Shown in pieces: positions 3,001-60,560 of a stretch of 64,000 bases of DNA (position 1 is its first letter; each line of letters opens with the position of its first letter). This DNA is from Microcaldota archaeon (lineage in GTDB: Archaea > Micrarchaeota > Micrarchaeia > Micrarchaeales > Micrarchaeaceae), in assembly GCA_021817565.1 (NCBI GenBank), contig JAKAUP010000007.1:1-64000 (forward strand). Direction: 5' to 3'. A program made the position numbers and the translations under genes. Below the pieces are notes generated by a model. That model made no database searches and was not told where the DNA came from. It worked only from the letters and a program-made list of their open reading frames with translations.

Positions 3001-3012
3001 TAGGTTGCTTGT

Positions 3013-3351: not shown

Positions 3352-3433
3352 AGAGGCCACTGCACAAAGTTTATTAAGGTTCTAGTCCTTATTAGATTGC
3401 TTTTGCTTAATTAATGCATCTTTTGGTGTTATT

Positions 3434-4126
3434 ATGTATCCAAACATACAAGCTTATGATAGAGGGGTAATGTTCAGCCCGGACGGGCGTCTTTTCCAGG
3501 TAGAGTATGCAAGGGAGGCTGTGAAGAGGGGCGCGACTTCTTTAGGTATGATAACAGATAAGGGAGTGTTGCTTCTTGCCCATAAGAACATATCCGACCC
3601 TTTAGTTGTCCCTTCAACCATACAAAAGATATTCAAGCTTGACCCGTATATAGGGCTTGCGTACAGCGGGATCGTATCTGACGGACTGATGGTGGTAAAG
3701 AACCTTAGAAGGAATACGCAGATGCACAGGATGCTTTATGACGAAACGCAGTCTGTTGAGACTGTCGCAAAGGTAATCGCCGAAAAGATGCAGGAAGCGA
3801 CGCAATACGGCGGGATAAGACCGTACGCAGTCTCTTTGCTCATAGGAGGAGTTGATCCCGAAAAACAGCTTTTTGAGGTTGAGCCCGGAGCTACGCTTTC
3901 TGGCTACAGGGCGGATGCGATAGGGCAGGGAAAGAAGATTGCTTCCGAGATCCTTCTCAAGGAGTACAAAGATGACATAACGCTTGACAATGCGATAAAC
4001 CTTGGGATAAGTATAATAAAGAAGGTAAACGACAAAGGCAAGATAGAGGCTGATGATGTGGAAATAAGTTATATCTCAGACAAGAAGGGATATGAGAAAC
4101 TTCCCAACATCGCCAAGTATTTCTGA
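3434..4126 (+). CDS. psmA: 20S proteasome alpha subunit
   Basis: The N-terminus YDRGVMFSPDGRLFQVEYAR is the signature of archaeal proteasome alpha subunits, which form the outer heptameric rings and gate substrate entry. The 230-residue length is typical. Conserved PYAVSLLIGG and a C-terminal helical tail follow. It begins at ATG 3434 after GGTGTTATT and heads the classic superoperon with SBDS and the exosome. The beta subunit is not in this window. Confidence 0.97.
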   Translation: MYPNIQAYDRGVMFSPDGRLFQVEYAREAVKRGATSLGMITDKGVLLLAHKNISDPLVVPSTIQKIFKLDPYIGLAYSGIVSDGLMVVKNLRRNTQMHRMLYDETQSVETVAKVIAEKMQEATQYGGIRPYAVSLLIGGVDPEKQLFEVEPGATLSGYRADAIGQGKKIASEILLKEYKDDITLDNAINLGISIIKKVNDKGKIEADDVEISYISDKKGYEKLPNIAKYF

Positions 4127-4143
4127 TAGATAGCAGTGTTGTA

Positions 4144-4830
4144 ATGTCCTCTAAGCAGATAGTTGTAAAATACACGCACGACAAGGAGGTTTTCGAGATT
4201 ATAGTGGACTCTGAGCTCGCTTACGAATACCTGAGCGGGAAGCGGACAGACCCTGTAGGCGTATTGGAATCCGATGATATCTGGAAGGATTCTGGAAAAG
4301 GGGTGAGGCAAAGCCAGGACAAGATAATGAAAGCTTTTGGCACCACTGACCTTGCGCTGGTCGCCGCGAAGATATTGAAGGACGGAAACGTGCCGCTTAC
4401 AACAGAGCATAGAAACAAGATGGCTGAGGAGAAGAGGAAGCAGGTTGTTGAAGAGATCGCAAAGAACGCGATGGATCCGCGCACGAACGCGCCCATGCCA
4501 AAGACGAGGATAGAGAACGCGATGCACGAAGCCAGGATTAACATCGATGCGTTTAAGAGTGTAAATGAGCAGGTGGAAAACACTATAGAAAGGATAAGAT
4601 CCATACTTCCGATAAAGATTGCAGTCATAAGAATACAGGTAATTGTGCCTGCGGAATATGCGGGAAGGAGTTTCGGCATAATAAAGCAGTTCGATGTGAA
4701 GTCTGAGGAATGGATGTCAAACGGCGCACTCAAGGCAGTGGTCGAACTTCCCGCAGGCCTTCAGAACAGCTTCTATGAGAAGATAAATGCAGTCTCTCAC
4801 GGGAACGTGAAGAGCGAGATATTGAAATAA
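4144..4830 (+). CDS. sdo1: Ribosome maturation protein SBDS/Sdo1
   Basis: This is a full-length, three-domain SBDS homologue of 228 residues. The N-terminal FYSH domain carries IVVKYTHDKEVFEIIVD, the middle helical domain includes EIAKNAMDPRTNAPMPKTRIENAM (residues about 105-128), and the C-terminal ferredoxin-like domain contains AVIRIQVIVPAEYAG. The family acts in 60S subunit maturation by releasing the anti-association factor aIF6/eIF6. The gap to psmA is 17 bp, and rrp4 begins 3 bp after its stop. Confidence 0.96.
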   Translation: MSSKQIVVKYTHDKEVFEIIVDSELAYEYLSGKRTDPVGVLESDDIWKDSGKGVRQSQDKIMKAFGTTDLALVAAKILKDGNVPLTTEHRNKMAEEKRKQVVEEIAKNAMDPRTNAPMPKTRIENAMHEARINIDAFKSVNEQVENTIERIRSILPIKIAVIRIQVIVPAEYAGRSFGIIKQFDVKSEEWMSNGALKAVVELPAGLQNSFYEKINAVSHGNVKSEILK

Positions 4831-4833
4831 GCG

Positions 4834-5454
4834 GTGCATATGAAAAAGATTGTTTTGCCAGGAGATGAGATGTACGACAAGCCGGTTAGGGCAAATCATA
4901 CCTATGTTGAGGGAGGCCGCACATTCTCAAAGGTGCTTGGGATATACAACGAGGAGAAGGACGAGCTTGTGCCACTGGAGGGCGCCTGGCATCCCAGGGT
5001 GGGAAACAGCATTGTGGGCATTGTCGCGTCGGTTGATAGAAGCACATCCTCAATAGAGTTGAGGCATTCTTCATATGGGATACTCATAAACGACAGGATG
5101 AGCAGGTATTCCCCGAGGAAGGGAGATATAGTAGAGTCTGTGGTAAAAAGCATCGAACGCAAAAGCGTACCGGTAATGGATAGGGTGAGGCCGATCGACG
5201 GACCCCCTCTTCTCATATACGTCAAGCCCGCAAAGGTGCCTAGGCTCCTTGGCAGGAATGATTCGATGGTAAAACAGATAGAGGAACTGACAGATACAAG
5301 AATAGTGGCAGGGTTGAACGGATTTGTGGCAGTAAGCGGAAGAGGTATAAACATGGCGGTTGCTTCAATAAGAAAGATAGAATCCGAGGCCCACACCTAC
5401 GGCCTGACTGACAGAATAAGAGAAATGCTTATTTCTATGAAGAACGATTCGTGA
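4834..5454 (+). CDS. rrp4: Exosome complex RNA-binding cap protein Rrp4
   Basis: The protein has an N-terminal domain (VLPGDEM motif), a central S1 domain (about residues 60-130) and a C-terminal KH domain containing GRNDSMVKQIEEL (residues about 139-151) and VAVSGRG. Rrp4 forms the trimeric RNA-binding cap of the archaeal exosome and feeds RNA into the Rrp41/Rrp42 ring. The start is GTG 4834, with ATG 4840 as a close alternative. It lies between SBDS and rrp41 in the conserved order. Confidence 0.95.
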   Translation: MHMKKIVLPGDEMYDKPVRANHTYVEGGRTFSKVLGIYNEEKDELVPLEGAWHPRVGNSIVGIVASVDRSTSSIELRHSSYGILINDRMSRYSPRKGDIVESVVKSIERKSVPVMDRVRPIDGPPLLIYVKPAKVPRLLGRNDSMVKQIEELTDTRIVAGLNGFVAVSGRGINMAVASIRKIESEAHTYGLTDRIREMLISMKNDS

Positions 5455-5458
5455 TATT

Positions 5459-6184
5459 ATGGCATCTAAGATTAACAAACCAAAACTTATGCATAATGGT
5501 AAAAGGCTGGACGGAAGAATGCCGGATGAACTCAGAAAGATAAGGATAGAGGCAGGCGTATTAAAGAATGCGAATGGCTCGGCTTATCTGGAATGGGGCA
5601 AGAACAGGATAATAGCCGCGATATACGGCCCGAGGGACGTTGTTCCAAAGCACTTCGCCGACCCCAACGCAGCTATAATCAAGTGCAGGTATTCAATGGC
5701 ACCGTTCTCGTCTCTCGAAGAGCATGGAAGGGCTGGCCAGAACAGGAGGGCCATAGAGATATCAAAAGTGATAAAGGAAGTTTTCGAGAACGCAGTAATC
5801 CTGGAGGAGTTTCCGAATAGCGAGATAGACATATTCCTGGAGGTATTGCAAAGCGATGGGAGCACAAGGGCAGCATGCATAAACGCCGCCGCTGTGGCGC
5901 TTGCTAGCGCCGGCATACCTATGAAGGACATGGTGTATGGGGTAAGCGTCGGGAAGGTTGATGGAGAGATATGCGTTGATGTTGATATGATAGAGGACAA
6001 CTATTCTGAAGCGGATATGCCTATGGCGATATCCCACAGGGACAACCGCATACTCCTGCTCCAAATGGATGGCGAGATGGACAGCAGCGAGATAAGGAAA
6101 GGATTCGATATGGCAGTGGCCGCTGGAGAGAAGATAAAGAGTCTGCAGAGGGAGGCGCTGCTCCAAATGTACAAAGGTGTTTGA
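5459..6184 (+). CDS. rrp41: Exosome catalytic subunit Rrp41
   Basis: This RNase PH-family protein of 241 residues is the phosphorolytic catalytic subunit of the archaeal exosome ring. Motifs include KRLDGRMPDELRKI, the RNA-binding YGPRDVVPKHF, EEHGRAGQNRRAIEISKVI and the catalytic region EICVDVDMIEDNYSEADMP with its conserved aspartates. It starts at ATG 5459, just after GTGATATT. The stop is immediately followed by the rrp42 ATG with no spacer (6184/6185). Confidence 0.97.
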   Translation: MASKINKPKLMHNGKRLDGRMPDELRKIRIEAGVLKNANGSAYLEWGKNRIIAAIYGPRDVVPKHFADPNAAIIKCRYSMAPFSSLEEHGRAGQNRRAIEISKVIKEVFENAVILEEFPNSEIDIFLEVLQSDGSTRAACINAAAVALASAGIPMKDMVYGVSVGKVDGEICVDVDMIEDNYSEADMPMAISHRDNRILLLQMDGEMDSSEIRKGFDMAVAAGEKIKSLQREALLQMYKGV

Positions 6185-6961
6185 ATGGGAGGAATAAACG
6201 AATTGAAGGGAGCTTACATAAGGTCCGCACTGAATGAGGGAAAGCGGCTTGATTCAAGGGAAGTTTTTGAGATGCGTGAGATAAAAGTTGAGTCTGACAT
6301 ATTATCAAATGCGGAAGGATCCGCAAGGGTGAAACTTGGCGATACGGATGTGATCGCCGGGTTGAAGGTTGTTGTTGAGGAACCGCACTCCGACACGCCG
6401 AAAGAGGGAAACCTTGTGGTTTCTGCCGAGCTGCTCCAGATGGCATCTGCCGACTTTGAGAGCGGACCGCCAAGCCCTGCGGCGATAGAGCTGGCGCGGG
6501 TGGTTGACAGAGGCATAAGGGCAGGGAACTGCGTAAACCTTGAGCGCCTATTTATCGAAGATGGAAAGGTTTACTCGCTTTATGTCGACATATATGTGTT
6601 GGATTATGACGGAAACCTTTTTGACGCGTGCACTGTTGCTGCAATGAGCGCCTTGATGAATGCCCGTCTCCCGAAATATGCGAACGGAGAGCTCGACAGG
6701 AAGGATAGAAATACGCAACTTGAGATACAGAACGTGGTGACGTCTACAACTTTTGGAAAGTTCGGCGACAACATTGTACTTGATATGAATGCGGATGAAG
6801 AGCAGGCGGCGGATGCGCGCATAACCATAACAACTGATGGAAAGACGGTGAGGGCGATGCAAAAGGGTTTAAAGGGGCATTTTACGATTGATGAAGTGGA
6901 AAGGTTGATAGGGATATCTATTAAGAAAAATGCTGATATAAGTAGCCGTATGGGGAAGTGA
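6185..6961 (+). CDS. rrp42: Exosome structural subunit Rrp42
   Basis: This 258-residue RNase PH-fold protein alternates with Rrp41 in the hexameric exosome ring. It carries KRLDSREVFEMREIKVE, VKLGDTDVIAGLK and ELARVVDRGIR. In the family it is catalytically inactive but needed for RNA binding at the active site. Its 3' end overlaps the longer possible reading frame of L37Ae, and the true L37Ae start is probably 6967. Confidence 0.95.
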   Translation: MGGINELKGAYIRSALNEGKRLDSREVFEMREIKVESDILSNAEGSARVKLGDTDVIAGLKVVVEEPHSDTPKEGNLVVSAELLQMASADFESGPPSPAAIELARVVDRGIRAGNCVNLERLFIEDGKVYSLYVDIYVLDYDGNLFDACTVAAMSALMNARLPKYANGELDRKDRNTQLEIQNVVTSTTFGKFGDNIVLDMNADEEQAADARITITTDGKTVRAMQKGLKGHFTIDEVERLIGISIKKNADISSRMGK

Positions 6962-6966
6962 TAGAA

Positions 6967-7209
6967 ATGGCAAAAGACACCATAAGATATGGAAGAAGGA
7001 TAAGGAAGGCGGTGAGCGCGATAAAGAAAGACAAGATTGCGCTCTACAAGTGCGAATACTGCGGAAAGATCGCAGTGGAAAGGGTAAGTACGGGCATATG
7101 GAGGTGCAGGCATTGCGAGAAGACGTATGCCGGTGGTGCATACACCATGACGACCCCGTCAGGAGAGTTTGCAAGACAGCAGATAAACAGCATAGGCAAG
7201 GGCAAATAG
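6967..7209 (+). CDS. rpl37ae: 50S ribosomal protein L37Ae (eL43)
   Basis: The ATG at 6967 gives the usual N-terminus MAKDTIRYGRRIRK. The four zinc-binding cysteines are CEYC and CRHC, surrounding KIAVERVSTGIWRC, and the conserved AGGAYTMTTPSG tail follows. The total of 80 residues is typical. A GTG at 6958 overlaps the rrp42 stop but would add only three residues not usual in the family. It keeps its canonical position after rrp42. Confidence 0.95.
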   Translation: MAKDTIRYGRRIRKAVSAIKKDKIALYKCEYCGKIAVERVSTGIWRCRHCEKTYAGGAYTMTTPSGEFARQQINSIGKGK

Positions 7210-7566
7210 ATGGTAGAAGTAGTATATGGGAAGATAGAGAAGCTTGTCGTACACCTAGCAGTTCGCATGGAGCTTGATGAGCTTATAAGAGAGAGAATGA
7301 CCCCTGGCGGCACCATACCCCTTTACTGGTGCAATGGTATGCTATTCGGGTTCAGCAACCTGCCCATGACAGGGAAGATAATAGAGGAGTATCTGCATGG
7401 GGTGCTGCATTGGGCGGAGGTACATTATACCGAAATGAGGGAGTATAATCCAGTGCTTGAACTCAAGGATGATAGCTATCCTGCGCCTATCAGCGTACGT
7501 GTGCTGGATATGCGCAAGTCCGAACTGCATACCGATTTTGTGAAATGGTTAAAGAAGCAGAAATAG
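7210..7566 (+). CDS. Conserved-position hypothetical protein between L37Ae and Rpo12
   Basis: I do not recognise this 118-residue protein. It starts at ATG 7210 directly after the L37Ae stop with no spacer, so it is translated from the same mRNA. The sequence looks soluble and mixed alpha-beta, with MTPGGTIPLYWCNGMLFG, an HWAEVHYTEMREYNP segment and a basic C-terminus. Other archaea have Rpo12, Brix or Pcc1 genes near this point of the superoperon, but I see no convincing similarity to Brix or Pcc1. An RNA-processing or translation role is inferred from the neighbours only. Confidence 0.6.
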   Translation: MVEVVYGKIEKLVVHLAVRMELDELIRERMTPGGTIPLYWCNGMLFGFSNLPMTGKIIEEYLHGVLHWAEVHYTEMREYNPVLELKDDSYPAPISVRVLDMRKSELHTDFVKWLKKQK

Positions 7567-7611
7567 AATAAGAAATGTTTTATATCTGAATGTTGCTTAT
7601 TACGTGATTTT

Positions 7612-7743
7612 ATGGTATACTTTTGTGCTGAATGCAAGAGAGAGATAGATAGCATAGAGAATGGAGTTAGCTGCGCTTATTGCGGAAGCAGGATGCTGAG
7701 AAAGAGAAGGCCTGGCATCGGCAGGACTGTAAAGAGCGATTAG
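7612..7743 (+). CDS. rpo12: DNA-directed RNA polymerase subunit Rpo12 (RpoP/Rpb12)
   Basis: This is a 43-residue zinc-ribbon protein with CAECKREI and CAYCGSRMLRKRRPG, which matches the archaeal RNA polymerase subunit P/Rpb12 in cysteine pattern and the basic tail. It starts at ATG 7612 after GTGATTTT and ends with TAG at 7741-7743, overlapping the stop of the convergent PRC-barrel gene by 4 bp. Rpo12 follows L37Ae in the superoperon of many archaea, which supports the assignment. Confidence 0.88.
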   Translation: MVYFCAECKREIDSIENGVSCAYCGSRMLRKRRPGIGRTVKSD

Positions 7744-7985
7744 ACTGGCTCTTTGCCCACTATGATTACTTCTGAGACGTTCTTTACGCGCTTGTAGTTT
7801 ATGCTGTTTTTCCTGATCTCGTTCTGAAGGTCTTCGGATCTTGATATGTTGTCCATGTTTTTTATCAAGATGGAGGATATTCCGCCGTTCTCGAAGTCGA
7901 TTATGATGTCTTCTACCTTGCCGAGCTTCTCTCCGGATGTGGAGATTATTGCTTTCCCGTAAATCTCTGATATTTTTAGATCCAT
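7740..7985 (-). CDS. PRC-barrel domain protein
   Basis: The 81-residue protein contains the PRC-barrel pattern LKISEIYGKAIISTSGEKLG, then VEDIIIDFENGGISSIL, and ends in VSEVIIVGKE. Stand-alone PRC-barrel proteins are common in archaea and are thought to act in RNA processing, the photosystem H-subunit fold or, for the CdpB family, cell division. Which of these applies here cannot be told. I chose ATG 7985; TTG 7991 would add two residues. Confidence 0.8.
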   Translation of the reverse strand: MDLKISEIYGKAIISTSGEKLGKVEDIIIDFENGGISSILIKNMDNISRSEDLQNEIRKNSINYKRVKNVSEVIIVGKEPV

Positions 7986-7994
7986 ATGCAACGC

Positions 7995-8528
7995 CTATTT
8001 TATTTCGTAAATGTGCTTTGCGGCAAACATTCTGTTTATATTAGCCATTAGATCCTTTATAAACTCTTCCGGATTTTTGGTGTAGGATTCTAACTCGGTT
8101 TCGGAGAACATACCTATGTTTCGTGAGATAAGCTTCTCCGCGTATTCTTTTGTGAGGAGGTAGTTCTTTGCGCCGCATGATCCGCATACGTATAACGGAA
8201 GCACTGAAGCCGGCTCGCTTTCGTCAATGGACAGCGGACGCAAACCGCACTTCATGCATGCATGGTTGAGCAGCACTGGCTCGTATACCCCTTCGCGCGG
8301 CGTTAGCCCTGCCGCCTCTACAAACTCCTCAGCGTGTTCCCTTGCGCCCTTTCCTTTTTTGAACAGATGCCTGTCGATTATTTTCCCGCCTGCAGAAAAG
8401 GTGGTTTCGAGTATATTTTCGTCTTTCTGCGCGGCCCACGTCTTTACGAGCGTCTTCCCGTCGTATACGTATTCAAGTTTGACTATATGCTCAGGGCTCT
8501 CCGAGATGTTTGAGGTTTCGTCTTCCAT
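7995..8528 (-). CDS. Hypothetical protein with a zinc-ribbon
   Basis: I do not recognise this 177-residue protein as a named family. The first 85 residues form a beta-rich region (VKLEYVYDGKTLVKTW). The middle has two Cys pairs, CMKCG at about residue 91 and CGSCG at about 114, consistent with a treble-clef or zinc-ribbon. The C-terminus is helical. It lies between the histone and PRC-barrel genes on the same strand with gaps of 0 and 9 bp, so an operon is likely. A nucleic-acid-related role is possible but unproven. Confidence 0.6.
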   Translation of the reverse strand: MEDETSNISESPEHIVKLEYVYDGKTLVKTWAAQKDENILETTFSAGGKIIDRHLFKKGKGAREHAEEFVEAAGLTPREGVYEPVLLNHACMKCGLRPLSIDESEPASVLPLYVCGSCGAKNYLLTKEYAEKLISRNIGMFSETELESYTKNPEEFIKDLMANINRMFAAKHIYEIK

Positions 8529-8768
8529 TCAATCGCTGTTTATCTTGTATGACTCTATGTCCTCTGGGGTTATCTCTTCGGAGTGCCTCTTTTTCGACAT
8601 CTTTATTGCGTGCTTGGATATTTCTATTGCTTTTTCTTCCAGTATTTTGGCGAGTTCCTCTGCCGCGCCCGGAGTCATATTTACCCCAAACTTTTCCTTA
8701 ACAAAGCGTTTAAGGGTGTTTTTAGGAATCCTTCCTTTTTTTTCGTCTTCAGCACTCAAGATCATCAT
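8529..8768 (-). CDS. Archaeal histone-fold protein
   Basis: This 79-residue protein has the histone-fold layout: helix 1 (RIPKNTLKRFVKEKFG), long helix 2 (AAEELAKILEEKAIEISKHA) and helix 3 (TPEDIESY) with the usual KRHSEEIT loop. Archaeal histones form dimers and longer filaments that wrap DNA. It is slightly longer than the 66-69 residue canonical proteins because of the acidic N-terminal extension (SAEDEKKG). The start is ATG 8768, with GTG 8771 adjacent. Confidence 0.85.
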   Translation of the reverse strand: MMILSAEDEKKGRIPKNTLKRFVKEKFGVNMTPGAAEELAKILEEKAIEISKHAIKMSKKRHSEEITPEDIESYKINSD

Positions 8769-8938
8769 CACAGCGTAGCTCAGTAATGCGAGTCATCACT
8801 CCAATTATTTTGATACAAAATGATTTAATTTTATGTTTGGGCATTGTTTACGTTGGTACGTGGTCGGTTTACAACAAGGTATTTAGTTTTAGGGAATTAT
8901 ATAATAAATCTTCTTGCCCTAAGGATTTGGTGAATATT

Positions 8939-9259
8939 ATGGTAGTAAAGGAGGTAAACGAAAGCGATTTCGAGAAGGAAGTGCTAAAGTCAGAGATTCC
9001 TGTGGTTATAGATTTCTGGGCGCCGTGGTGCGGTCCTTGCAGGATGTTCTCCCCGATAATAGATGAGGTATCGGAAGACTATAAGGGCAAGATAAAATTC
9101 GTGAAGATAAACGCGGATGACAACCAGAAGCTGGCGGAAGAATATCAGGTGATGGGGATACCGACAGTTGCGCTCATAGTGAAAGGGAAGCTCAAGGCGG
9201 TAAATGTAGGTGCGGTCGGAAAAGATACGATTAAGGGCTGGATAAACAGAAACGTATGA
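8939..9259 (+). CDS. trxA: Thioredoxin
   Basis: From the ATG at 8939, preceded by GGTGAATATT, this is a 106-residue classical thioredoxin. The active site FWAPWCGPCRMFSPI lies at about residues 24-38, the cis-proline loop MGIPTV near residue 74, and GAVGKDTIKGWI at the end. It reduces disulfides in cytosolic proteins. The longer in-frame extension to 8786 is non-thioredoxin sequence and was rejected. hisS starts 4 bp after the stop. Confidence 0.95.
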   Translation: MVVKEVNESDFEKEVLKSEIPVVIDFWAPWCGPCRMFSPIIDEVSEDYKGKIKFVKINADDNQKLAEEYQVMGIPTVALIVKGKLKAVNVGAVGKDTIKGWINRNV

Positions 9260-9263
9260 TCTT

Positions 9264-10550
9264 ATGGGGGACATACGGCTTCCAAGAGGTGTAAGAGATT
9301 TTATGCCTAACGAGGCGCTCTTTAGAAACCAAGTGATAGAAAAGATTGAGGATGCATTCCAACTTTATGGTTTTGTCAATATAGAAACGCCTAAGATTGA
9401 GCCGCTTGGGCTGCTCAAGGCGAAGAGCGGACTGGGGGACGAGAATAAACTCATATTCGAGATTGCAGAAGAAAATATAGGACTCAGGTACGACATGACA
9501 ATGTCCCTTGCAAGGTATATTGTGATGCACCAGGATATACCAATGCCTTTCAAGCGCTACGCAATAGGGAATGTTTGGAGGATGGATGAACCACAGAGGC
9601 TTAGATATAGGGAATTTACTCAGGCGGACATAGACATAATAGGAGGGAATGAGGCTGCTGCGAATGCAGAGGTTATAAGCGCGGCGTGTACCGCCTATGC
9701 GAAACTGGACGTAGCTCCTAAGATAAGTATAAGCAGTAGAAAAATCGTTGAGGGGGCGATGCGCGCATTCGGGGTGCCAAAGGAGAAGATGATTGGCTGC
9801 ATGCGCATTCTTGACAAATTGGATAAGATTGGAAGTGACGGGGTGAGAGGTATGCTTGACGAATACGCTGGCCCGGATATATCTGGAAAACTTGTTGAGA
9901 TGCTTGATTTTGGGGATACAAACGAGGAGAAGATAAGGTATGCAACTGGCATAGCAGGGGAAGATGCAACTAAGGAAATCAGGGATACGCTTGCGCTGCT
10001 TGATACTTACAGCAGCAAGGAAGCTGTAGAAATCGATTTCTCTGTTATAAGAGGGTTAGATTATTACACCGGCATTGTGATGGAGGCGAGAATGTATTCG
10101 GCTTCCGGAAAGTTTGATGTTTTGGGGGGCGGAGGTAGATACTCTGACCTCGTGAAGAACCTTGGAGGAAGGGAACTCGGCGGGGTAGGAGTGGCGCTAG
10201 GCGTGGACAGAATTCTCGAAACGCTTGATATCTCGAAGCGGACGAAAAAGAGCATTGCCGAGGTCTTTGTATCGAATGTGAAGAGCAATAATTTTAGATA
10301 CGCCTTGGGCGTGGCAAACAGGCTTAGAAATGAGAGTATACCGACAGACATGAACATTGCCGAAAGGAACATATCTAACCAGATGTCTTACGCGGCAAAC
10401 ATGGGATATAGGTATGTGGTGATTGTTGGGGATAACGAGGAGAAAAAGAATATGCCGAAGGTAAGGGATATGTCAAGCGGCGATGAGGTGCAGGTTTCAG
10501 CTGATGAACTTGCCAAATGGATTACGGACAAACAAAAATCAACAAATTAG
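9264..10550 (+). CDS. hisS: Histidyl-tRNA synthetase
   Basis: This class II aminoacyl-tRNA synthetase of 428 residues begins with PRGVRDFMPNEALFRN. Motif 2 is around LRYDMTMSLARYI and WRMDEPQRLRYREFTQADIDI; the HisA and HisB loops are RGLDYYTGIVMEA and LGGGGRYSDLVKNLGG. A C-terminal anticodon-binding domain follows (about residues 335-428). It charges tRNA-His. The 3' end overlaps the stop of the convergent gene by 4 bp. Confidence 0.96.
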   Translation: MGDIRLPRGVRDFMPNEALFRNQVIEKIEDAFQLYGFVNIETPKIEPLGLLKAKSGLGDENKLIFEIAEENIGLRYDMTMSLARYIVMHQDIPMPFKRYAIGNVWRMDEPQRLRYREFTQADIDIIGGNEAAANAEVISAACTAYAKLDVAPKISISSRKIVEGAMRAFGVPKEKMIGCMRILDKLDKIGSDGVRGMLDEYAGPDISGKLVEMLDFGDTNEEKIRYATGIAGEDATKEIRDTLALLDTYSSKEAVEIDFSVIRGLDYYTGIVMEARMYSASGKFDVLGGGGRYSDLVKNLGGRELGGVGVALGVDRILETLDISKRTKKSIAEVFVSNVKSNNFRYALGVANRLRNESIPTDMNIAERNISNQMSYAANMGYRYVVIVGDNEEKKNMPKVRDMSSGDEVQVSADELAKWITDKQKSTN

Positions 10551-11041
10551 GATTTTCCTCCTATGTCTTCCTTTCCCTTCTGCGACCTTTTTTCTATGTC
10601 GTTCGCGAGTGCGGTGCGCTGTTCCTCAGTCATCACGTTCTGGACTATGTACTTGGAATAGTTGCTCGCAGTCTGCGATATGTCCATGAGTATTGCCTGC
10701 AGGTCTGCTATTTTCAGCATTATGTCCTTTGTAGGCTGCATTACCTCTATCCCGACGGGGGCGTATCTGAAGACCATCGTTATTGCACTTCTTACGTTCT
10801 CGAAAAGCACGGTTGCGGTTGCGCTGGTTGTGAACACGCCTTCTATCTCAAGCGGATCCTCTATTGAGCCGTAGCAGTACACTACCCCGGGCTCTTTCAA
10901 TAAGTGGTTATTGATCAGATCTACGAGCAGCGGTTGGAGCTTATCCTTCTCCTTGCTGTGCATGTCGAAATACAGCCTTAGAAGCACGCCTCCCGCATTT
11001 ACCTTTTCATCCGTTACTTTTTGCACTTCGCTCTTAGGCAT
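10547..11041 (-). CDS. Hypothetical protein, alpha-beta
   Basis: This 164-residue protein is not recognised. It shows AGGVLLRLYFDMHSKEKDKL, then an alternating pattern including PGVVYCYGSIEDPLEIEGVF and SATATVLFENVRSAITMVF, and a charged helical tail ending KGKEDIGGKS. It looks soluble, with no signal peptide. It is a single gene convergent with hisS, and its start ATG 11041 is separated from cysS by 38 bp. A conserved DPANN protein is possible, but I cannot name one. Confidence 0.55.
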   Translation of the reverse strand: MPKSEVQKVTDEKVNAGGVLLRLYFDMHSKEKDKLQPLLVDLINNHLLKEPGVVYCYGSIEDPLEIEGVFTTSATATVLFENVRSAITMVFRYAPVGIEVMQPTKDIMLKIADLQAILMDISQTASNYSKYIVQNVMTEEQRTALANDIEKRSQKGKEDIGGKS

Positions 11042-11079
11042 CGAATCAAAAATTATTGACCTTGTTTATATATAAAGCT

Positions 11080-12522
11080 TCACGTTGCACGGCGCCATAC
11101 TGGACCGTCCTTTCCATCCTCGACAATTATCCCGAAGCTTTCGGCCAATTCATTCCTTAACCGATCCGCCTTCTTGAAATCCTTCTGCGCTCTTGCATCC
11201 TCCCGCTCGTTGATCAGTTTCATTGCGGCCGGTGCTATGCTCTTTATCGCAGCATGCTTCTCGAACGACAAACCAAGGACGGAGTCCATCTCAACCATTG
11301 CGTTTATGATGAGCGCGGAATCCTTATCAGATAGGCGTGATGATGAAGCACGCCTGTTCACTGCGCTTATAAGCGCGTGCATTGATGAGAGCGCTTCCGG
11401 TGTGTTCATATCGTTCTCCATCCAGCTGAAGAACCTGTCGCGAGCTGTGTTCACCTCCTTTTCTAGCGCTTTGTCTATGCGCCCTTCTGTTCCTGCTGCC
11501 GAAACCCTCTCTATGAAATTATATATTCCGTTGAGCGTTTTCTCCGCATTCTGCAGTGACTCGGTTGTAAGATTCATTATGCTCCTGTAATGACCGGAAA
11601 GCACAAAGTACTTGTACCCTTCAGGGGATATGCCACTCTTCCCAAGATCTTCAAGCGTGTATATGTTATGCAAGGATTTGGACATTTTTCTTCCGTTTAC
11701 CTTCAGGAACTCGTTATGCACCCAGAAGTTTACGAACTTTTCCCCTGTTGCAGATTCGGATTGCGCTATCTCGTTCTGATGGTGTATCATGATATGATCA
11801 ACTCCGCCCGTGTGTATGTCAAAGTGGTTTCCAAGATATTCCATGCTTATAGCGCTGCATTCTATGTGCCAGCCCGGAAAGCCCCTGCCATATCGCGACT
11901 CCCACACCATCTCCTTCTCCTCCTTCGGGGAGAATCGCCATACCGCAAAATCCGTTATGTTCCTTGTTCCGGAAGGCCTTTCCACCCGGGCTCCTGCGAT
12001 AAGCGAGTCGTTTAGCTGTTCGAAGCTCATCCCTGCCAGCTCGCCATACCCTTTGAACTTTGATGTGTCAAAATATATCCCGGTGTTCAACTTGTACAAG
12101 TAACCCAGTGCGTCAAGTTTATCTATCAGAACCAGTATTTGAGGGATATGCGCTGTTGCCCTTGCGATGACTGATGGGCGTTCTATATTCAACTTCTTCA
12201 TGTCAATAAGGAAGAGGCGCTCGTATTCTTCTGCGACTTGCTTGGCTGACTTGTGCTCTGATCTGGCTGCCTGTTTAAGCTTGTCTTCCCCTAGGCTTCC
12301 GTCCCCGACCAGATGTCCCACATCCGTCACATTCATTACGTGCCTTACCTTATACGAGAGGTGCTGAAGTACTCTTTTGAGCGTGTCCGAGACTATGTAT
12401 GCGCGTAGGTTCCCAACATGCGCGTTGCCGTACACGGTCGGACCGCAAGAATATATCCTTACCTCGCTCGATATGGGCTTGAACTCCATCTTCTTGCGGG
12501 TCAGTGTGTTGTATAGCTTCAT
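11080..12522 (-). CDS. cysS: Cysteinyl-tRNA synthetase
   Basis: This class I synthetase of 480 residues from ATG 12522 (GTG 12528 is also possible) has SCGPTVYGNAHVGNLRAY with a zinc-ligand Cys and HVGN in place of HIGH. It also has the WHIECSAI zinc site, the GGVDHIMIHHQNEIAQSE block and a perfect KMSKS in GRKMSKSLHNIY. A C-terminal DALR-like helical domain follows. It loads cysteine onto tRNA-Cys. The direct CysS route implies that the SepRS/SepCysS pathway is not needed here. Confidence 0.96.
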   Translation of the reverse strand: MKLYNTLTRKKMEFKPISSEVRIYSCGPTVYGNAHVGNLRAYIVSDTLKRVLQHLSYKVRHVMNVTDVGHLVGDGSLGEDKLKQAARSEHKSAKQVAEEYERLFLIDMKKLNIERPSVIARATAHIPQILVLIDKLDALGYLYKLNTGIYFDTSKFKGYGELAGMSFEQLNDSLIAGARVERPSGTRNITDFAVWRFSPKEEKEMVWESRYGRGFPGWHIECSAISMEYLGNHFDIHTGGVDHIMIHHQNEIAQSESATGEKFVNFWVHNEFLKVNGRKMSKSLHNIYTLEDLGKSGISPEGYKYFVLSGHYRSIMNLTTESLQNAEKTLNGIYNFIERVSAAGTEGRIDKALEKEVNTARDRFFSWMENDMNTPEALSSMHALISAVNRRASSSRLSDKDSALIINAMVEMDSVLGLSFEKHAAIKSIAPAAMKLINEREDARAQKDFKKADRLRNELAESFGIIVEDGKDGPVWRRAT

Positions 12523-54928: not shown

Positions 54929-54998
54929 TTATATATATTTTGTATGTATAAAAATTTTATATACTACATGCTGCGTTGAATAATTCCATTAAAACATA

Positions 54999-55015
54999 GG
55001 GGTTACAGAAACCCC
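54999..55015 (+). terminator. Hairpin downstream of ileS
   Basis: GGGGTT and AACCCC form a 6-bp stem with an ACAGA loop about 70 bp after the ileS stop. It may protect the mRNA end. There is no T tract directly behind it, so termination is only a guess. Confidence 0.4.
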
Positions 55016-55093
55016 AATGCTATTTAGTTTTGGCGAATAGATGAAGACTTCACGATGAAGAAGGCAGTATAGCAATAGGAAACATGGAGGGTG

Positions 55094-55113
55094 TTGTGAT
55101 AAATATATCACAA
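55094..55113. other. Perfect 8-bp inverted repeat, possible operator
   Basis: TTGTGATAAATATATCACAA is a perfect dyad with 8-bp arms and a 4-bp spacer. TGTGA-N-TCACA-type dyads are typical of dimeric helix-turn-helix regulators. It lies about 135 bp upstream of the small gene at 55230. Confidence 0.45.
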
Positions 55114-55229
55114 GAACAACAGAGATTAAGTAAGATACAACGAATAGTTTGTTGCCGAAGGTGAATTTTGCCACGATTTTGACTTTGTTAGCGATTGGAA
55201 GAGCAAACTTAAACTGGTAAATAAAGGAA

Positions 55230-55490
55230 ATGGATCCCATTCAAATTTCCAGGATCGTTCATGAAATGGCAAACAGTATGGCATCAATTAGTCGGTTATC
55301 GGTGGTTGAAGAAGATTACAATGAAATTATTAAATTTAGCTTAATTCCGGAATATGACGAATATATTAGGACCTGGCATAGAATCCAAGACCCAAAACCG
55401 AAGACTAAGCTTTTGAATTATGAGGAACTCCAGATTGGGCATAGTGGGTCGGAACTGGAGGCCAATAATACGGAGAAGTACAGGATATAA
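55230..55490 (+). CDS. Small hypothetical protein in the AT-rich island
   Basis: The 86-residue frame from ATG 55230 (MDPIQISRIVHEMANSMASI) is helical, with an acidic middle and a DPKPKTKLLNYEELQIGHSG segment. It has no recognisable motif. Base composition is lower in GC than in ileS. It may be real or a fragment of a longer decayed gene; downstream sequence has several broken frames. Confidence 0.35.
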   Translation: MDPIQISRIVHEMANSMASISRLSVVEEDYNEIIKFSLIPEYDEYIRTWHRIQDPKPKTKLLNYEELQIGHSGSELEANNTEKYRI

Positions 55491-56157
55491 AAATATAGTG
55501 AAATGACACTCAAGAAGTGTTCTTCTTGCCGTAATAACATAAGTCGCTAGGCACAAAAATTAATTAGTGTATATGTGCATATAAGAGGTGAAGAGTCAAG
55601 TGAACATAAGGTAGAAATTATATGCGTAAAGTAACTAACACAAAAAGGCAAATCAGTAAGGAGATATTATGGGGGCGATGCGTTAGATAGAAATGATGTA
55701 TTTGCGCAATTGGAAAAATTAGGTATTGAAGCTGAAGTGCTAGTTCAAATAGAGCAACGATAGGGGGTAACGATTTACCAAAGCGAAGAGCGGTGAAGGC
55801 CCAATTAGACCTCCCCATAGACGTGGGGATTGAAGTTTCATGACACAAAAAGAAGAAAAAATGGTGCAAAAACAGCAGGGAGGTTTTTGAGTATGAGCTG
55901 AAATGTCCTATAATATATGGTGTTTTATATAGTGTAAACAGAAAATTCTGGAAAATAGCTTCAGTAGGAAGAACAGGAGCATTATCTCCGAAGCGATTCA
56001 GTGGTTTTAAGCATATGACTTACTTTGTAGCTATGTGCTGCAAAGGGATAAGTAGAATTATTTAGGGTGGATTATACCTTACTAATTTGTTCGAAGCGTC
56101 GTAATACCACCAAATGTATTTAAACATATGCGTATTTAATATTATAAAGGTGGATAG
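55491..56157 (+). other. Decayed coding region, remnants of at least two genes
   Basis: No intact gene is present. Fragments are protein-like but broken: around 55683-55763, DRNDVFAQLEKLGIEAEVLV; then, in another frame to 55844, GGNDLPKRRAVKAQLDLPID; and about 55860-56065, YELKCPIIYGVLYSVNRKFW with SPKRFSGFKHMTYFVAMCC ending in TAG at 56065. These look like former genes with frameshifts and lost starts. The family is not recognised. The final 90 bp carry the promoter of the radical SAM cassette. Confidence 0.5.
56114..56157 (+). promoter_or_regulatory. Promoter and ribosome-binding site of the radical SAM cassette
   Basis: TGTATTTAAACAT (about 56114-56126) and TATTTAATATTATAA (about 56132-56146) are TATA-like. 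AAAGGTGGATAG precedes the TTG at 56158, with a GGTGG core about 4 nt from the start, like other genes in this window. The first TATA-like element is about 44 bp from the TTG; the second sits too close for a leader. Confidence 0.5.
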
Positions 56158-56283
56158 TTGAAACAAGATATATATGAAAATAAAGAGACTTCTCTGGAGA
56201 AAGAAAAAATATTGGTTGTGGAAGAAATTAGAAATTGTTGGAGATTTGGTATGATGAAAGGTGACAGTTGGCCTAAAACATAA
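56158..56283 (+). CDS. Candidate 41-residue precursor peptide of the radical SAM cassette
   Basis: TTG 56158 is directly behind an in-frame TAG and a good ribosome-binding site. The frame gives an acidic/helical first part (KQDIYENKETSLEKEKILVV) and a C-terminal end NCWRFGMMKGDSWPKT rich in Cys, Trp, Met and Lys. It overlaps the start of the radical SAM gene by 23 bp in another frame. Peptides in this position, next to a radical SAM enzyme with an RRE-like N-terminus, are often RiPP substrates. No homologue is known to me. It could also be a short leader frame or an N-terminal remnant of the enzyme. Confidence 0.4.
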   Translation: MKQDIYENKETSLEKEKILVVEEIRNCWRFGMMKGDSWPKT

Positions 56284-57580
56284 AGGTTTTAGGCTTTGGT
56301 ATGATCTAATGTTTTATAGTAATGGGTTTAACTCTAAAAGATTTATTGCAAGGAGAGAGACTTTTGGGCTATTAGTATATGACAAAAAGAGAGCAAAGAT
56401 TTTTATTGCAAAAGGTGTGTATAGCTTAGATGGTATAGACAAGCTAGTATTTGCAGACGAAAAAGGTGAAAGGACACGTATAGAAGTTTCGGAGGTTACG
56501 TTAATAAACTCGAATTTAGATCTGCCGAAAGATTTTTTGTTTTCGCCTACCTACGTTGAAATATACCCTATAATGAATTGTAATGAACGTTGCTTTTTTT
56601 GTTATGTGGGTAATTCCCTAACTCATCGCCGTATGGAAATGAGTGGGGATATTGCAACAGCCACTGCAAATAGGATAGGAGAAAGTGGTGTTTTAACAAC
56701 CTCTATACTTGGCGGAGAACCTTTCTTATATAACAGACTTGAAAAGCTAGCTGTAAATTTGCATGATAACAATACCAAGGTGTCGGTTTCTACAAACGGA
56801 ACTGTACATAATTACGAGCTCTTTAAAAAACTTATCAAAATAGAAGTTGGTTTTAACGTTTCGTTCCATTCGCATATACCAGAAATACAAAATAAGATAG
56901 TAAAAAATAGTATTGGATATAATAAGACAGTAGCGACTTTGAAGTTCTTATTGAATAATACTTCTACAGAATATATAAATGTATCGATAGTAGCAAATTC
57001 ACTTAATTATGAAAAAATACCCGATACCATAAGATTTTTGCATGAAATCGGTATAGATAGTGTATCTATATATCATGCCCAGGGGGCAGGATTTTCTGTT
57101 ACAAATAATTTGAGCAGGTTAGGCTACTTTGCGTGGTTAGAAATGATGAAAGAGGCAATATCAATAGGTAAAGAATTGGGAGTTAATGTAAGATCGGTAA
57201 CGAACTATCCGTTTTTTGTTGAAAAAGAGTTGGGTTTCTCTACAGACTTAGGACTTTCTAACTTCTTGTACGGAACCGGTGACGGTAGACGTACGTTATA
57301 TATAAACTATGATGGGTGTATATATCCAACTTCATATAATTTCCCTGATAACAGACTGCTTTTAGGTAATGTTATAAGAGATAGTATATTGGATATTTGG
57401 CAGAATAGTGTGATACTTAATTATATAAGAAACGCTTCTGTACCAAAAGATTGTAAAGCGTGTAGGTTTTTTGATATTTGTAGAGGTGGACCAATCACAA
57501 ATTATGACTTATCTAAATATCTTGGGCATAAAAGAATAGAACCGAACTGCCCAATACATTCTAAAAATTGTATAGAGTAA
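56261..57580 (+). CDS. Radical SAM/SPASM enzyme with N-terminal RRE-like region
   Basis: The radical SAM motif CNERCFFC (C107, C111, C114) binds the 4Fe-4S cluster that cleaves S-adenosylmethionine. The C-terminal SPASM region has YDGCIYPTSYNF, CKACRFFDICRGG and NCPIHSKNC for extra clusters. The N-terminus RFIARRETFGLLVYDKKRAK resembles the peptide-binding PqqD/RRE fold of RiPP maturases. The length of 439 residues and GTG start at 56261 (ATG 56309 is alternative). It is the first enzyme of an AT-rich three-gene cassette. The product is not known. Confidence 0.8.
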   Translation: MTVGLKHKGFRLWYDLMFYSNGFNSKRFIARRETFGLLVYDKKRAKIFIAKGVYSLDGIDKLVFADEKGERTRIEVSEVTLINSNLDLPKDFLFSPTYVEIYPIMNCNERCFFCYVGNSLTHRRMEMSGDIATATANRIGESGVLTTSILGGEPFLYNRLEKLAVNLHDNNTKVSVSTNGTVHNYELFKKLIKIEVGFNVSFHSHIPEIQNKIVKNSIGYNKTVATLKFLLNNTSTEYINVSIVANSLNYEKIPDTIRFLHEIGIDSVSIYHAQGAGFSVTNNLSRLGYFAWLEMMKEAISIGKELGVNVRSVTNYPFFVEKELGFSTDLGLSNFLYGTGDGRRTLYINYDGCIYPTSYNFPDNRLLLGNVIRDSILDIWQNSVILNYIRNASVPKDCKACRFFDICRGGPITNYDLSKYLGHKRIEPNCPIHSKNCIE

Positions 57581-57584
57581 TTTT

Positions 57585-59687
57585 ATGCGTAGCCGATTAA
57601 CAAAATTTATTTTAGAAATCGATTTTAATCCTAATTGTACTGTTGAGTCAGTTGGAGGCAAAGGCTGGGCATTACTTAGGATGCCTAAAAAAATTAATAT
57701 ACCAAGAGGTTTTATAATTAATACCAGGGCTTTTGATACGTATCTAAAATATAATCACATTTTAGATGATTTTGACCGGCTTTCTAATACAAAAGAGCAG
57801 AAAATAATAGAAGAAAAAATAGAAAATGGAAAATTTCCTGTATCGTTACATTCAGAGATAGTAAAATCATTGAAAAAATATGGCCTTAGTGGTTCGAATT
57901 TGGTTGTTAGGAGTTCTGCCACTATAGAGGACTCTAAAAATAAGAGCTTTGCTGGTAAGTTTGAGACGATAATAAATGTTAGGGGTATCCAAAAAGTCGA
58001 AAAGGCCATACGTAAGATATATTGTTCATTATTTAACGTTGATATAGATTATTTTAGGGGGTCTGCTACTGGATCAAATAACTTGAAAATGGGGATTGTG
58101 GTACAGGAGTTAGTATCAGGTGAGGTATCTGGTGTCTTGTTTACAAAGAGTCCGAATAGCAGAAAGGATACGTCTATTATAGAAGCGGTTGTTGGGTTGA
58201 ACGAAGGGCTAGTTTCAGGTAGAATTACACCTAGCAGGTTTGTTTTGGATTGGGAAAAAGGTTTTATTGATAAGCAGTATATAAAGCAGAAAATTGCATT
58301 TCGACCTAGAAAAAATTTTGGTGTCGAGAAGGTAACTAATAAACTCGATATCGAAGATATACTTACAGATAAAATGTTATATAAGCTATTTGAAACCGGT
58401 AAAAAAATAGAGAACATATTTGGAAAACCACAGGATATTGAGTGGACTATTAAAAATAGTAAAATTTATGTTTTACAATCTAGGCCCATAACTTCGATGG
58501 GATCTTTTTATATGCAGAATTTTGATTTGGATAGTTTTTCTGAGACGTTTGTTGGTTATCCTGCCTCTAAAGGAATTGCTACCGGTAAAGTTAAGATTGT
58601 TAGGGAACCTAACGAATTTGTACCTAAGGACGCCATACTTGTTGTTGACGTATTAGAAACTGATTACCCAATTAAATCTATAAAGAAAGCGAAGGCAATA
58701 GTAACTCAAGACGGTGGAATGCTATCGCATGCTGCAATAATAGCTAGAGAACTTCAGATACCGTGTGTGGTCGGAGTTGAGGGGGTAATTAGAAGGCTAA
58801 AGGATGGGGATATTGTATTTGTTGATGGTACACGCGGAATGGTTTATAAGGGTAATAAAAATAAGAGGGATATTAAATTCAAACTCAGTGAGGTGTTGGA
58901 TTATTCTTTCGTGTACGATTTTGACAGAATCGTAAAAATTCCAAAAATTGATGTGTACGTTGAGGAGTTTGGGAATAAGGTAATTTATTATAGTGAAAAG
59001 GAGCTGAATAGTGAGGAGATTAATTTATATCTTAAACCACTATTTGCCCAAAACAAGATGATAGAGTATGGAAGCAAACCCAAATATTTTATATATAAGC
59101 AATATCTTTTGTATAAAAAGGATCAGGAACTGTGTAAGTTAACTAGATTAGCAATAAAGGCTGCAAAATCTTTCGACCATTTAAAAATAGAGAGTATAGC
59201 TAGTATTTTGTTATCAAAAGCCAAAGAGTATGTTTCTTATTCTAAAAAATTAGAAAATTTAAAAACACGTAAAGAAAAACTAAATTGTCTGCTTCTGCTT
59301 CAACGAGCTAACTGGTGTTATACCTTGGTTAATGAGTTAATATGTGAAGGTTACGGAATTACTAAGCTTGATAGAAAGCTGCGTTACGAGCTGAAGAGGT
59401 ATGGTATATCGATGCTGGATTTTGTTTATAGTGTAGACAGTAATAATGTCACAAATTTACTACAATATTCTAAAAAATCGCAAAAACTGTTATTTGGGAT
59501 AAAGTTTTATAATGCAATAAAACGGTGGAGATTGTGTTCTTATCTCGAATTTGAAAAGGTTGGTGCAACAGGGGACGAATATTATTCTAGAATTAATTAT
59601 ATTATTAAGTCATTGGCTGGTGCTAATGTTAGCACAGATAAATTAAGAATAGAGGCAATTCGATTATTTGGGTCAGGTAATGTTTAA
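57585..59687 (+). CDS. PEP-synthase-like ATP-grasp/phosphohistidine enzyme
   Basis: The N-terminal ATP-grasp domain (about 1-300) has LVVRSSATIEDSKNKSFAGK (R about 108), the PPDK_N signature, and IVVQELVSGEVSGVLFTKSP. The swivelling domain at about 325-425 has QDGGMLSHAAIIARELQIPC with the phosphorylated His at about 382 and VVGVEG. The C-terminal 275 residues are helical and unlike the PEP/pyruvate TIM barrel of PPDK and PEP synthase. In rifampin phosphotransferase a similar layout passes phosphate from ATP through His to a substrate. Here the acceptor is unknown; the neighbouring peptide or metabolite is a guess. Confidence 0.8.
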   Translation: MRSRLTKFILEIDFNPNCTVESVGGKGWALLRMPKKINIPRGFIINTRAFDTYLKYNHILDDFDRLSNTKEQKIIEEKIENGKFPVSLHSEIVKSLKKYGLSGSNLVVRSSATIEDSKNKSFAGKFETIINVRGIQKVEKAIRKIYCSLFNVDIDYFRGSATGSNNLKMGIVVQELVSGEVSGVLFTKSPNSRKDTSIIEAVVGLNEGLVSGRITPSRFVLDWEKGFIDKQYIKQKIAFRPRKNFGVEKVTNKLDIEDILTDKMLYKLFETGKKIENIFGKPQDIEWTIKNSKIYVLQSRPITSMGSFYMQNFDLDSFSETFVGYPASKGIATGKVKIVREPNEFVPKDAILVVDVLETDYPIKSIKKAKAIVTQDGGMLSHAAIIARELQIPCVVGVEGVIRRLKDGDIVFVDGTRGMVYKGNKNKRDIKFKLSEVLDYSFVYDFDRIVKIPKIDVYVEEFGNKVIYYSEKELNSEEINLYLKPLFAQNKMIEYGSKPKYFIYKQYLLYKKDQELCKLTRLAIKAAKSFDHLKIESIASILLSKAKEYVSYSKKLENLKTRKEKLNCLLLLQRANWCYTLVNELICEGYGITKLDRKLRYELKRYGISMLDFVYSVDSNNVTNLLQYSKKSQKLLFGIKFYNAIKRWRLCSYLEFEKVGATGDEYYSRINYIIKSLAGANVSTDKLRIEAIRLFGSGNV

Positions 59688-60531
59688 TTTACAGAAAGTT
59701 ATCCCTATGCAAAACAAAAAGAAGGAAATTTTATTAAATACTTACCGTGGATTTAAAGTCGTTTGGGAATTTGAAAGAGTATATAGTGAAAAATCTAAAT
59801 TCTTTGAAATATTAATTGGGAATAATAAGTTATTAGGAACTTTTTTGGCTTTGAACGAAGATATACAATCTAGCGAATATGACTCTTATATTTTTCACGA
59901 GATGTTAGTACACCCAGCAATGTGTATTGCAAAAAACCCAAGACGTATTTTACTTATAGGTAATGGGGAGGGAGCGGCAATATTAGAGATATTAAAACAT
60001 AGTTCTGTAAAAGAGGTTGTTTGGGTAGATATAGATCGCAAATTAGTTGAAGTATCTTCAAAGATGTTACCTTACGCTTGGAAAGGTGTAGATAAAAGAG
60101 TTGTGTATATAGAAGATGACGGTTATAACTTTCTTAAAAAAGCTAATTTGGAAAACAAAAAATTTGATGTAATTATTTTAGATGTTACTAGAGTGTCTGG
60201 AACTCATGAAACCAAATTATTCGGAAAAAATACAACCAGACTGATAAATTCGGTTATGCATAGCGGGAGTGTTTTGATAACTGTACCAGGGATACTTTTC
60301 CCAGATAGTTTAGATAAAAGTAGAATAAATAAGGCTTATAGCACATTCAAATATATCCGTCGTTTAAGTTTTTTTATGCCTTCGTTTCTTGGAATCCAAA
60401 GGTTTTTTATAGCTACTATGAAAAATGATCCATATAGTATATCAAAGAAAATTATTCGGCGAAAAATCGATAAGTTGAACGGTACATTGCAATATTATGA
60501 TGAGAATTCTCATTTTTCTTCGATGACTTAA
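59680..60531 (+). CDS. Spermidine-synthase-fold (SpeE-like) protein
   Basis: ATG 59680 overlaps the stop of the previous gene by 8 bp and is preceded by CAGGT. The Rossmann core has RILLIGNGEGAAILEILKHS and VVWVDIDRKLVEVSSKMLPY, matching polyamine aminopropyltransferases, with NEDIQSSEYDSYIFHEMLVH in the binding loop. The usual catalytic segment D-x-T-D-P reads DVIILDVTRVSG, so the second Asp is lost. It may bind S-adenosylmethionine or its decarboxylated form, acting as a methyl- or aminopropyl-transferase on another acceptor, perhaps the peptide. The length is 283 residues. Confidence 0.72.
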   Translation: MFNLQKVIPMQNKKKEILLNTYRGFKVVWEFERVYSEKSKFFEILIGNNKLLGTFLALNEDIQSSEYDSYIFHEMLVHPAMCIAKNPRRILLIGNGEGAAILEILKHSSVKEVVWVDIDRKLVEVSSKMLPYAWKGVDKRVVYIEDDGYNFLKKANLENKKFDVIILDVTRVSGTHETKLFGKNTTRLINSVMHSGSVLITVPGILFPDSLDKSRINKAYSTFKYIRRLSFFMPSFLGIQRFFIATMKNDPYSISKKIIRRKIDKLNGTLQYYDENSHFSSMT

Positions 60532-60540
60532 CTTTGCTAA

Positions 60541-60560
60541 ATCCTAAAAACTTATAGGAT
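60541..60560 (+). terminator. Hairpin at the end of the radical SAM cassette
   Basis: ATCCTA-aaaactta-TAGGAT forms a 6-bp stem, 9 bp after the cassette's last stop, followed by a T-rich stretch near 60570. This is a plausible terminator. Confidence 0.45.

What the first reader, a model, noticed from the sequence alone, without database searches (positions are those of the whole stretch)
56158..60560. Possible new modification cassette: radical SAM/SPASM, PEP-synthase-like phosphotransferase and SpeE-like protein
Three unusual enzymes lie on one strand with 4-bp, overlapping or near-zero spacing: a radical SAM/SPASM enzyme with an RRE-like N-terminus, an ATP-grasp and phosphohistidine protein lacking the PEP-binding barrel, and a spermidine-synthase fold missing a key Asp. 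A 41-residue frame with a C, W, M-rich end sits in front. The base composition is clearly more AT-rich than the flanking genes, suggesting transfer. I know no described pathway with this trio. Radical SAM/RRE enzymes often mature peptides; a phosphorylated and alkylated or aminopropylated peptide product is a testable idea.
Basis: partly seen in the sequence, partly recalled or inferred. Interest (0 to 1): 0.85.

Follow-up and report, generated by a model that had tools for sequence, protein, structure and literature searches.

The report
Streptide-like modified-peptide cassette in a micrarchaeon
A tiny archaeon carries a gene cassette that probably makes a small peptide whose lysine and tryptophan are stapled together, as in the streptococcal peptide streptide, and beside the stapling enzyme sit a phosphate-transferring enzyme and an aminopropyl/methyl-transferase-like enzyme that no described peptide pathway uses.

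Summary
In detail: a 41-codon ORF, a radical SAM enzyme, a PEP-synthase-like phosphotransferase without the PEP barrel and a SpeE-like protein form a tightly packed AT-rich operon (window 56158-60531) in a Micrarchaeota genome. The 41-residue peptide ends ...MMKGDSWPKT, and KGDGW is the segment that streptide maturases (StrB/SuiB) cyclise by a Lys-Trp bond. The radical SAM protein's best sequence and fold matches in the PDB are SuiB. A second genome, G017, has a related peptide (...LSKGDGWHRTI) directly before a relative of the same radical SAM gene. In 1.18 Mb read in six frames, KGDxW occurs only at these two places. The radical SAM-phosphotransferase pair recurs: gene remnants lie directly before an intact phosphotransferase in two genomes, and analogous sets occur in G231 and a Thermococcales contig. 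The complete trio was found intact only here; the SpeE-like gene is linked by position alone. Best reading: an archaeal streptide-like RiPP locus with an unprecedented phosphotransferase step. Later steps are inferred. SPASM cysteines and the TIGR04080 cut-off are not met, so it is a variant, not a member, of the streptide family.

The parts
56158..56283 (+). candidate precursor peptide, 41 aa, MKQDIYENKETSLEKEKILVVEEIRNCWRFGMMKGDSWPKT; TTG start with GGTGG upstream
   Evidence: aligns with the G017 peptide L117:2495-2644 (35% identity)
56257..56271 (+). KGDSW codons: predicted site of a Lys-Trp cross-link (streptide core segment is KGDGW)
   Evidence: motif unique in 1.18 Mb apart from G017; PMC5491770
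56270..56295 (+). 10-bp hairpin between the peptide core and the probable radical SAM start; possible attenuator or processing site
   Evidence: -13.9 kcal/mol, z -3.8, 0 of 200 shuffles as good
56309..57580 (+). radical SAM/SPASM-like enzyme, 423 aa from ATG 56309 (frame open from GTG 56261); CxxxCxxC at residues 91/95/98, C-terminal Cys 337, 382, 385, 391, 414, 421
57585..59687 (+). PEP-synthase-like phosphotransferase, 700 aa: ATP-grasp (about 20-305), phosphohistidine swivel domain with SHAA (H382; 347-418), own helical C-terminal domain (about 430-700), no PEP/pyruvate barrel
   Evidence: C-terminal family in 10 of 301 micrarchaeal genomes
59680..60531 (+). SpeE-like protein (frame open from TTG 59668); nucleotide-binding half conserved, second Asp of DxTDP replaced by Arg

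Best explanation
The cassette is a RiPP locus of streptide (KxxxW) type in a micrarchaeon. Step 1 (well supported by sequence): the 41-residue precursor is bound through its N-terminal leader and the radical SAM enzyme joins Lys and Trp of KGDSW into a macrocycle, as SuiB/StrB does. Step 2 (inferred): the PEP-synthase-like protein uses ATP, carries a phosphate on His382 of its swivelling domain, and delivers it to the substrate held by its C-terminal helical domain, most simply Ser or Thr (or a carboxylate) of the cyclised peptide. Step 3 (weakly inferred): the SpeE-like protein transfers an aminopropyl or methyl group from decarboxylated SAM or SAM to the same product. No protease or exporter lies in the cassette, so leader removal and export must use host genes. 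A hairpin between the precursor and enzyme genes would favour more precursor than enzyme.
For: PDB sequence search: best hit is SuiB 5V1Q/S/T, E 6e-13. Fold search: the five top hits are all SuiB chains. KGDSW lies at the end of the small ORF 5' of the enzyme. A second genome (G017) has ...SKGDGWHRTI directly 5' of a relative of the same radical SAM gene, and the two peptides align. KGDxW occurs only twice in 1.18 Mb in six frames, at these two places; at that density about 1e-4 would be expected in 160 bp upstream. Published streptide loci show the same order, small ORF with KGDGW then radical SAM (PMC5491770). PPS link: radical SAM remnants lie directly 5' of intact PPS genes in G024 and G230. 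Peptide + radical SAM + PPS-like also occur together in Thermococcales L075 (47-aa ORF 3608-3751, radical SAM 3758-4957, PPS 4954-6462) and, split, in G231 contig C5. The phosphotransferase keeps the catalytic His and ATP-grasp residues in all nine homologues, and its best fold match is rifampin phosphotransferase. AdoMet decarboxylase is present in the genome.
Against: The enzyme scores 57.6 bits against a TIGR04080 cut-off of 500, and TIGR04303 scores higher. Its SPASM lacks two of the usual cysteines. The PPS family occurs without a radical SAM neighbour in six genomes (G010, G264, G052, G208, G231 contig C2, G236). No second complete trio was found. SpeE linkage rests on position only. No exporter or protease is present in the cassette.
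Confidence: 0.68

Rival explanations
1. Peptide and radical SAM enzyme make a toxic or signalling streptide-like product, and the PPS-like protein is a self-protection enzyme that phosphorylates and inactivates it, as rifampin phosphotransferase inactivates rifampin. Non-producers keep it as immunity.
For: Rph is the best fold match. PPS stays intact where the neighbouring radical SAM gene has decayed (G024, G230) and in genomes with no radical SAM partner.
Against: In Thermococcales L075 and G231 contig C5 the PPS parts are interleaved with the maturase genes, as a biosynthetic step would be. No toxicity data exist. Rph's rifampin-binding domain is absent.
Confidence: 0.17
2. The radical SAM enzyme does process the KGDSW peptide, but PPS and SpeE-like genes are unrelated neighbours caught in the same AT-rich accessory island.
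For: PPS is mostly found alone. The SpeE-like gene is not linked to either family elsewhere. Only about 1 of 80 PPS-like loci from all prokaryotes has a same-strand adjacent peptide-type radical SAM gene.
Against: 4-bp and overlapping spacing; remnants of the same radical SAM gene at the same position before PPS in two other genera.
Confidence: 0.2
3. The radical SAM enzyme is not a Lys-Trp cyclase but another SPASM-type peptide or cofactor maturase; KGDxW is coincidence or a recognition element.
For: GeoRSP TIGR04303 is the top NCBIfam hit, far below its cut-off. SPASM cysteines deviate, and the motif rests on two genomes.
Against: SuiB tops both sequence and fold searches. KGDxW is found nowhere else in 1.18 Mb.
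Confidence: 0.15
4. The SpeE-like gene is simply the genome's spermidine synthase and has nothing to do with the peptide (compatible with the main reading of the other genes).
For: Best PF01564 hit of the genome; AdoMet decarboxylase is present at C2:207673.
Against: Acceptor-site Asp is replaced by Arg; it scores 148 against a speE cut-off of 249.6. Only 5 of 59 relatives have a homologue although 43 have AdoMetDC-family proteins.
Confidence: 0.35

Closest known systems
Streptide / KxxxW RiPPs (StrA-StrB, SuiA-SuiB; TIGR04080)
   Same: small ORF with KGDxW 5' of the radical SAM/SPASM gene; SuiB is the best solved relative by sequence and fold
   Different: archaeal host; core KGDS(G)W near the very C-terminus of the peptide; two SPASM cysteines missing; short beta-only N-terminus; no protease/ABC transporter gene; PPS-like and SpeE-like genes instead
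Rifampin phosphotransferase (Rph) and PEP synthase
   Same: ATP-grasp PPDK_N domain and phosphohistidine swivel domain with conserved catalytic residues
   Different: no PEP/pyruvate barrel, no rifampin-binding domain between the two; order ATP-His-own helical domain of about 270 residues, seen so far only in Micrarchaeota
Polyamine aminopropyltransferase (SpeE; Thermus 1UIR/3ANX)
   Same: Spermine_synth fold and dcSAM/SAM-side motifs (QSSEYDSYIFHE, G-GEG, VDID, DDG)
   Different: DxTDP replaced by DVTRV; below curated speE cut-off
Microcin C maturation (MccD/MccE aminopropylation of a peptidyl phosphate) - from memory, not tested
   Same: combines phosphate and aminopropyl on a ribosomal peptide
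   Different: different enzymes; only an analogy

Membership tests
Streptide/KxxxW RiPP | precursor with KGDGW-type segment encoded just 5' of the radical SAM gene | tested here: met
   KGDSW at 56257-56271; KGDGW in G017
Streptide/KxxxW RiPP | maturase scores above the TIGR04080 cut-off (500 bits) | tested here: not met
   57.6 bits; no micrarchaeal genome above cut-off
Streptide/KxxxW RiPP | seven conserved SPASM cysteines (PMC5491770) | tested here: not met
   only six C-terminal Cys; the PC and CX3C positions read PT and GGP; the G238 and G024 relatives share GG[SP]
Streptide/KxxxW RiPP | closest solved structure is SuiB | tested here: met
Streptide/KxxxW RiPP | N-terminal RRE (winged helix) | tested here: inconclusive
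   AF2 model shows beta strands only in residues 1-66 at moderate confidence
Streptide/KxxxW RiPP | protease and ABC transporter downstream | tested here: not met
   none in the cassette; next gene is a 150-aa ORF without Pfam match
Streptide/KxxxW RiPP | Lys C-beta to Trp C7 bond | not testable with these tools
   needs MS/NMR
PEP synthase / PPDK | ATP-grasp and phosphohistidine domains | tested here: met
PEP synthase / PPDK | C-terminal PEP/pyruvate TIM barrel | tested here: not met
   no hit after residue ~430; helical domain in model
Rifampin phosphotransferase | rifampin-binding domain between ATP and His domains; NF041857 cut-off 999 | tested here: not met
   219 bits; domains directly adjacent
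Spermidine synthase | speE cut-off 249.55 and DxTDP acidic pair | tested here: not met
   148.4 bits; DVTRV

The most novel reading that the evidence does not exclude
A new archaeal RiPP class: a Lys-Trp stapled peptide that is phosphorylated by a dikinase-type (ATP-grasp/phosphohistidine) peptide kinase and then aminopropylated or methylated by a SpeE-derived enzyme. More widely, ATP-grasp/phosphohistidine phosphotransferases would be partners of radical SAM peptide maturases in archaea (Micrarchaeota, Thermococcales).
Probability: 0.25. Interest if true: 0.88.

Novelty: new variant of a known kind. Interest (0 to 1): 0.72.

Why it matters
Streptide-type Lys-Trp cyclisation is reported, in the papers read here, from streptococci, Lactococcus and a pseudomonad (PMC5491770, PMC13361665). 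An archaeal example in a very reduced, probably symbiotic micrarchaeon would extend it to another domain. It would also suggest chemical signalling or warfare by DPANN archaea. A dikinase-type phosphotransferase acting on a ribosomal peptide has no precedent in the searched library. It can be tested by a two-gene, then three-gene, co-expression with mass spectrometry.

Tried and rejected
NCBIfam models on the peptide gave no hit, and phmmer of the peptide against the PDB gave none: too short. Upstream regions of the lone PPS genes were searched for KGDxW or a radical SAM remnant, with none found in G010, G264, G052, G236, G231 contig C2 and G208. Viral contigs hold no relatives. A shared integration site next to ileS was considered and dropped: the cassette lies downstream of ileS here, the G231 set upstream of it, and the other relatives' ileS loci carry nothing similar. 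Rfam gave no RNA family. A short-peptide profile search of 296 genomes gave only the two known peptides above noise.

Full report
Setting. The window is the start of contig C2 of a 775-kb, 97%-complete genome. Its relatives in named collections are Candidatus Micrarchaeota. The cassette lies between ileS and a DUF488/citrate-synthase block. Its G+C is 0.30-0.335 against 0.43-0.45 in the neighbours, and GC3 0.25-0.28 against 0.48. The same-genus genome G001 has no relative of the PPS C-terminal domain or SpeE, and only a weak SPASM-region hit for the radical SAM query. The cassette is therefore accessory.

The peptide. The 41-codon ORF ends ...CWRFGMMKGDSWPKT. Benjdia et al. (PMC5491770) show that the streptide cyclase joins Lys and Trp of KGDGW, is strict for both residues, needs the leader, and that KGDGW peptides are encoded just upstream of the enzyme. 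In relative G017, an ORF ending ...FGLSKGDGWHRTI lies directly before a radical SAM homologue. The two peptides align with 14 identical positions. A profile of the two finds only these two among 296 genomes above noise. KGDxW occurs exactly twice in 1.18 Mb of window and locus DNA read in six frames, at these two places. This is the main evidence, and it is directly visible in sequence.

The radical SAM enzyme. It has CNERCFFC and a C-terminal SPASM-like region. SuiB is the best PDB sequence match (E 6e-13). The AlphaFold2 model (mean pLDDT 70, eight sequences) has SuiB chains as its five best fold matches. TIGR04080 matches far below its cut-off. The SPASM region is atypical: the PC and CX3C cysteines read PT and GGP. 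G238 shares both changes (ST, GGS), and G024 and G230 share GG[PS] where preserved. Probably only one auxiliary cluster remains (inference). The N-terminus is short and beta-rich in the model, so an RRE is not demonstrated. From the G017 homologue the start is more likely ATG 56309. A strong hairpin (56270-56295, z -3.8) then lies between the peptide core and the enzyme start.

The phosphotransferase. ATP-grasp and phosphohistidine domains are complete, and GGK, RSS, QDIEW, LQSR and LSHAAI motifs are invariant in nine homologues. Residues ~430-700 form a largely helical domain with no solved relative by sequence. The best whole-chain fold match is rifampin phosphotransferase, then PEP synthase and PPDK. 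The C-terminal family was found in 10 of 301 micrarchaeal genomes, all in one order.

Co-occurrence. In G024 a decayed radical SAM gene with in-frame stops, and in G230 a C-terminal remnant, lie directly upstream of the intact PPS gene. G238 has a radical SAM fragment at a contig end, and G017 a copy with the barrel deleted at a contig end, possibly an assembly effect. So the radical SAM-PPS pair is older than this genome, and the radical SAM gene is repeatedly lost while PPS stays. Independent sets exist in Thermococcales archaeon contig L075: a 47-aa ORF ending CGKKPCGHTIFAFEEQNE, radical SAM and PPS-like genes, overlapping or 6 bp apart. In G231 contig C5 a 41-aa ORF ending KKGGHCCMG is followed by radical SAM, a phosphohistidine domain protein, a second radical SAM and a separate ATP-grasp protein, with LANC-like and S41 peptidase genes nearby. 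Among 80 PPS-like loci from all prokaryotes only L075 has such a neighbour, so this is not a general property of PPS proteins.

The SpeE-like protein. Its nucleotide-side motifs are conserved but DxTDP is DVTRV. The genome has AdoMet decarboxylase and one other, divergent Spermine_synth protein. Homologues are in 5 of 59 relatives, whereas 43 of 59 have AdoMetDC-family proteins. The G003 fragment (about 43% identical) begins at a contig end, so its neighbours are unknown. The link to the peptide rests on position and the 8-bp overlap with PPS only.

Mechanism and certainty. Shown: gene order, domain content, motif, homology, recurrence of the pair. Inferred: Lys-Trp cyclisation (about 0.7), phosphotransfer to the peptide (about 0.4), aminopropyl or methyl transfer to the peptide (about 0.2). 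The immunity reading of PPS explains its persistence after loss of the maturase and is the main rival for that gene.

Novelty. Step 1 is a variant of a known kind in a new domain of life. The coupling to a dikinase-type phosphotransferase was not found in any paper of the open library searched. Most subscription papers are not held there, so absence is weak evidence.

Noticed in passing
L160 (G231:C5:10500-27000), 5360-9820: Second putative archaeal RiPP locus: 41-aa ORF ending KKGGHCCMG, radical SAM, stand-alone phosphohistidine domain, second radical SAM (699 aa), stand-alone ATP-grasp PPDK_N protein; LANC-like and S41 peptidase genes on the other strand and a transposase-like ORF next to it.
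   Followed up: partly
L075 (Thermococcales archaeon 44_46, LGET01000061), 3608-6462: 47-aa ORF, radical SAM enzyme and barrel-less PPS-like protein in one tightly packed operon.
   Followed up: partly
L116 (G024) 6240-6720; L147 (G230) 7313-7870; L152 (G238) 51-635; L117 (G017) 2686-3015: All four other copies of this radical SAM subfamily are broken or truncated, while the adjacent PPS genes (where present) are intact.
   Followed up: yes
L154 (G047:C11) 156-4395: Tandem radical SAM genes, an arginase-like protein and a short RRE-like protein: looks like another archaeal RiPP cluster.
   Followed up: no
L150 (G208:C11) 7020-11293 and 2375-3574: Two PPS-like genes in tandem, one of the specific C-terminal family, with an S41 peptidase gene nearby.
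   Followed up: no
window 56245-56262 and 56295-56312: TTTGGTATGAT is repeated on both sides of the hairpin, once before the peptide core and once at the probable radical SAM start.
   Followed up: no
window 54990-56150: About 1.1 kb of AT-rich sequence without a convincing gene between ileS and the cassette (one 86-aa ORF without Pfam match).
   Followed up: partly
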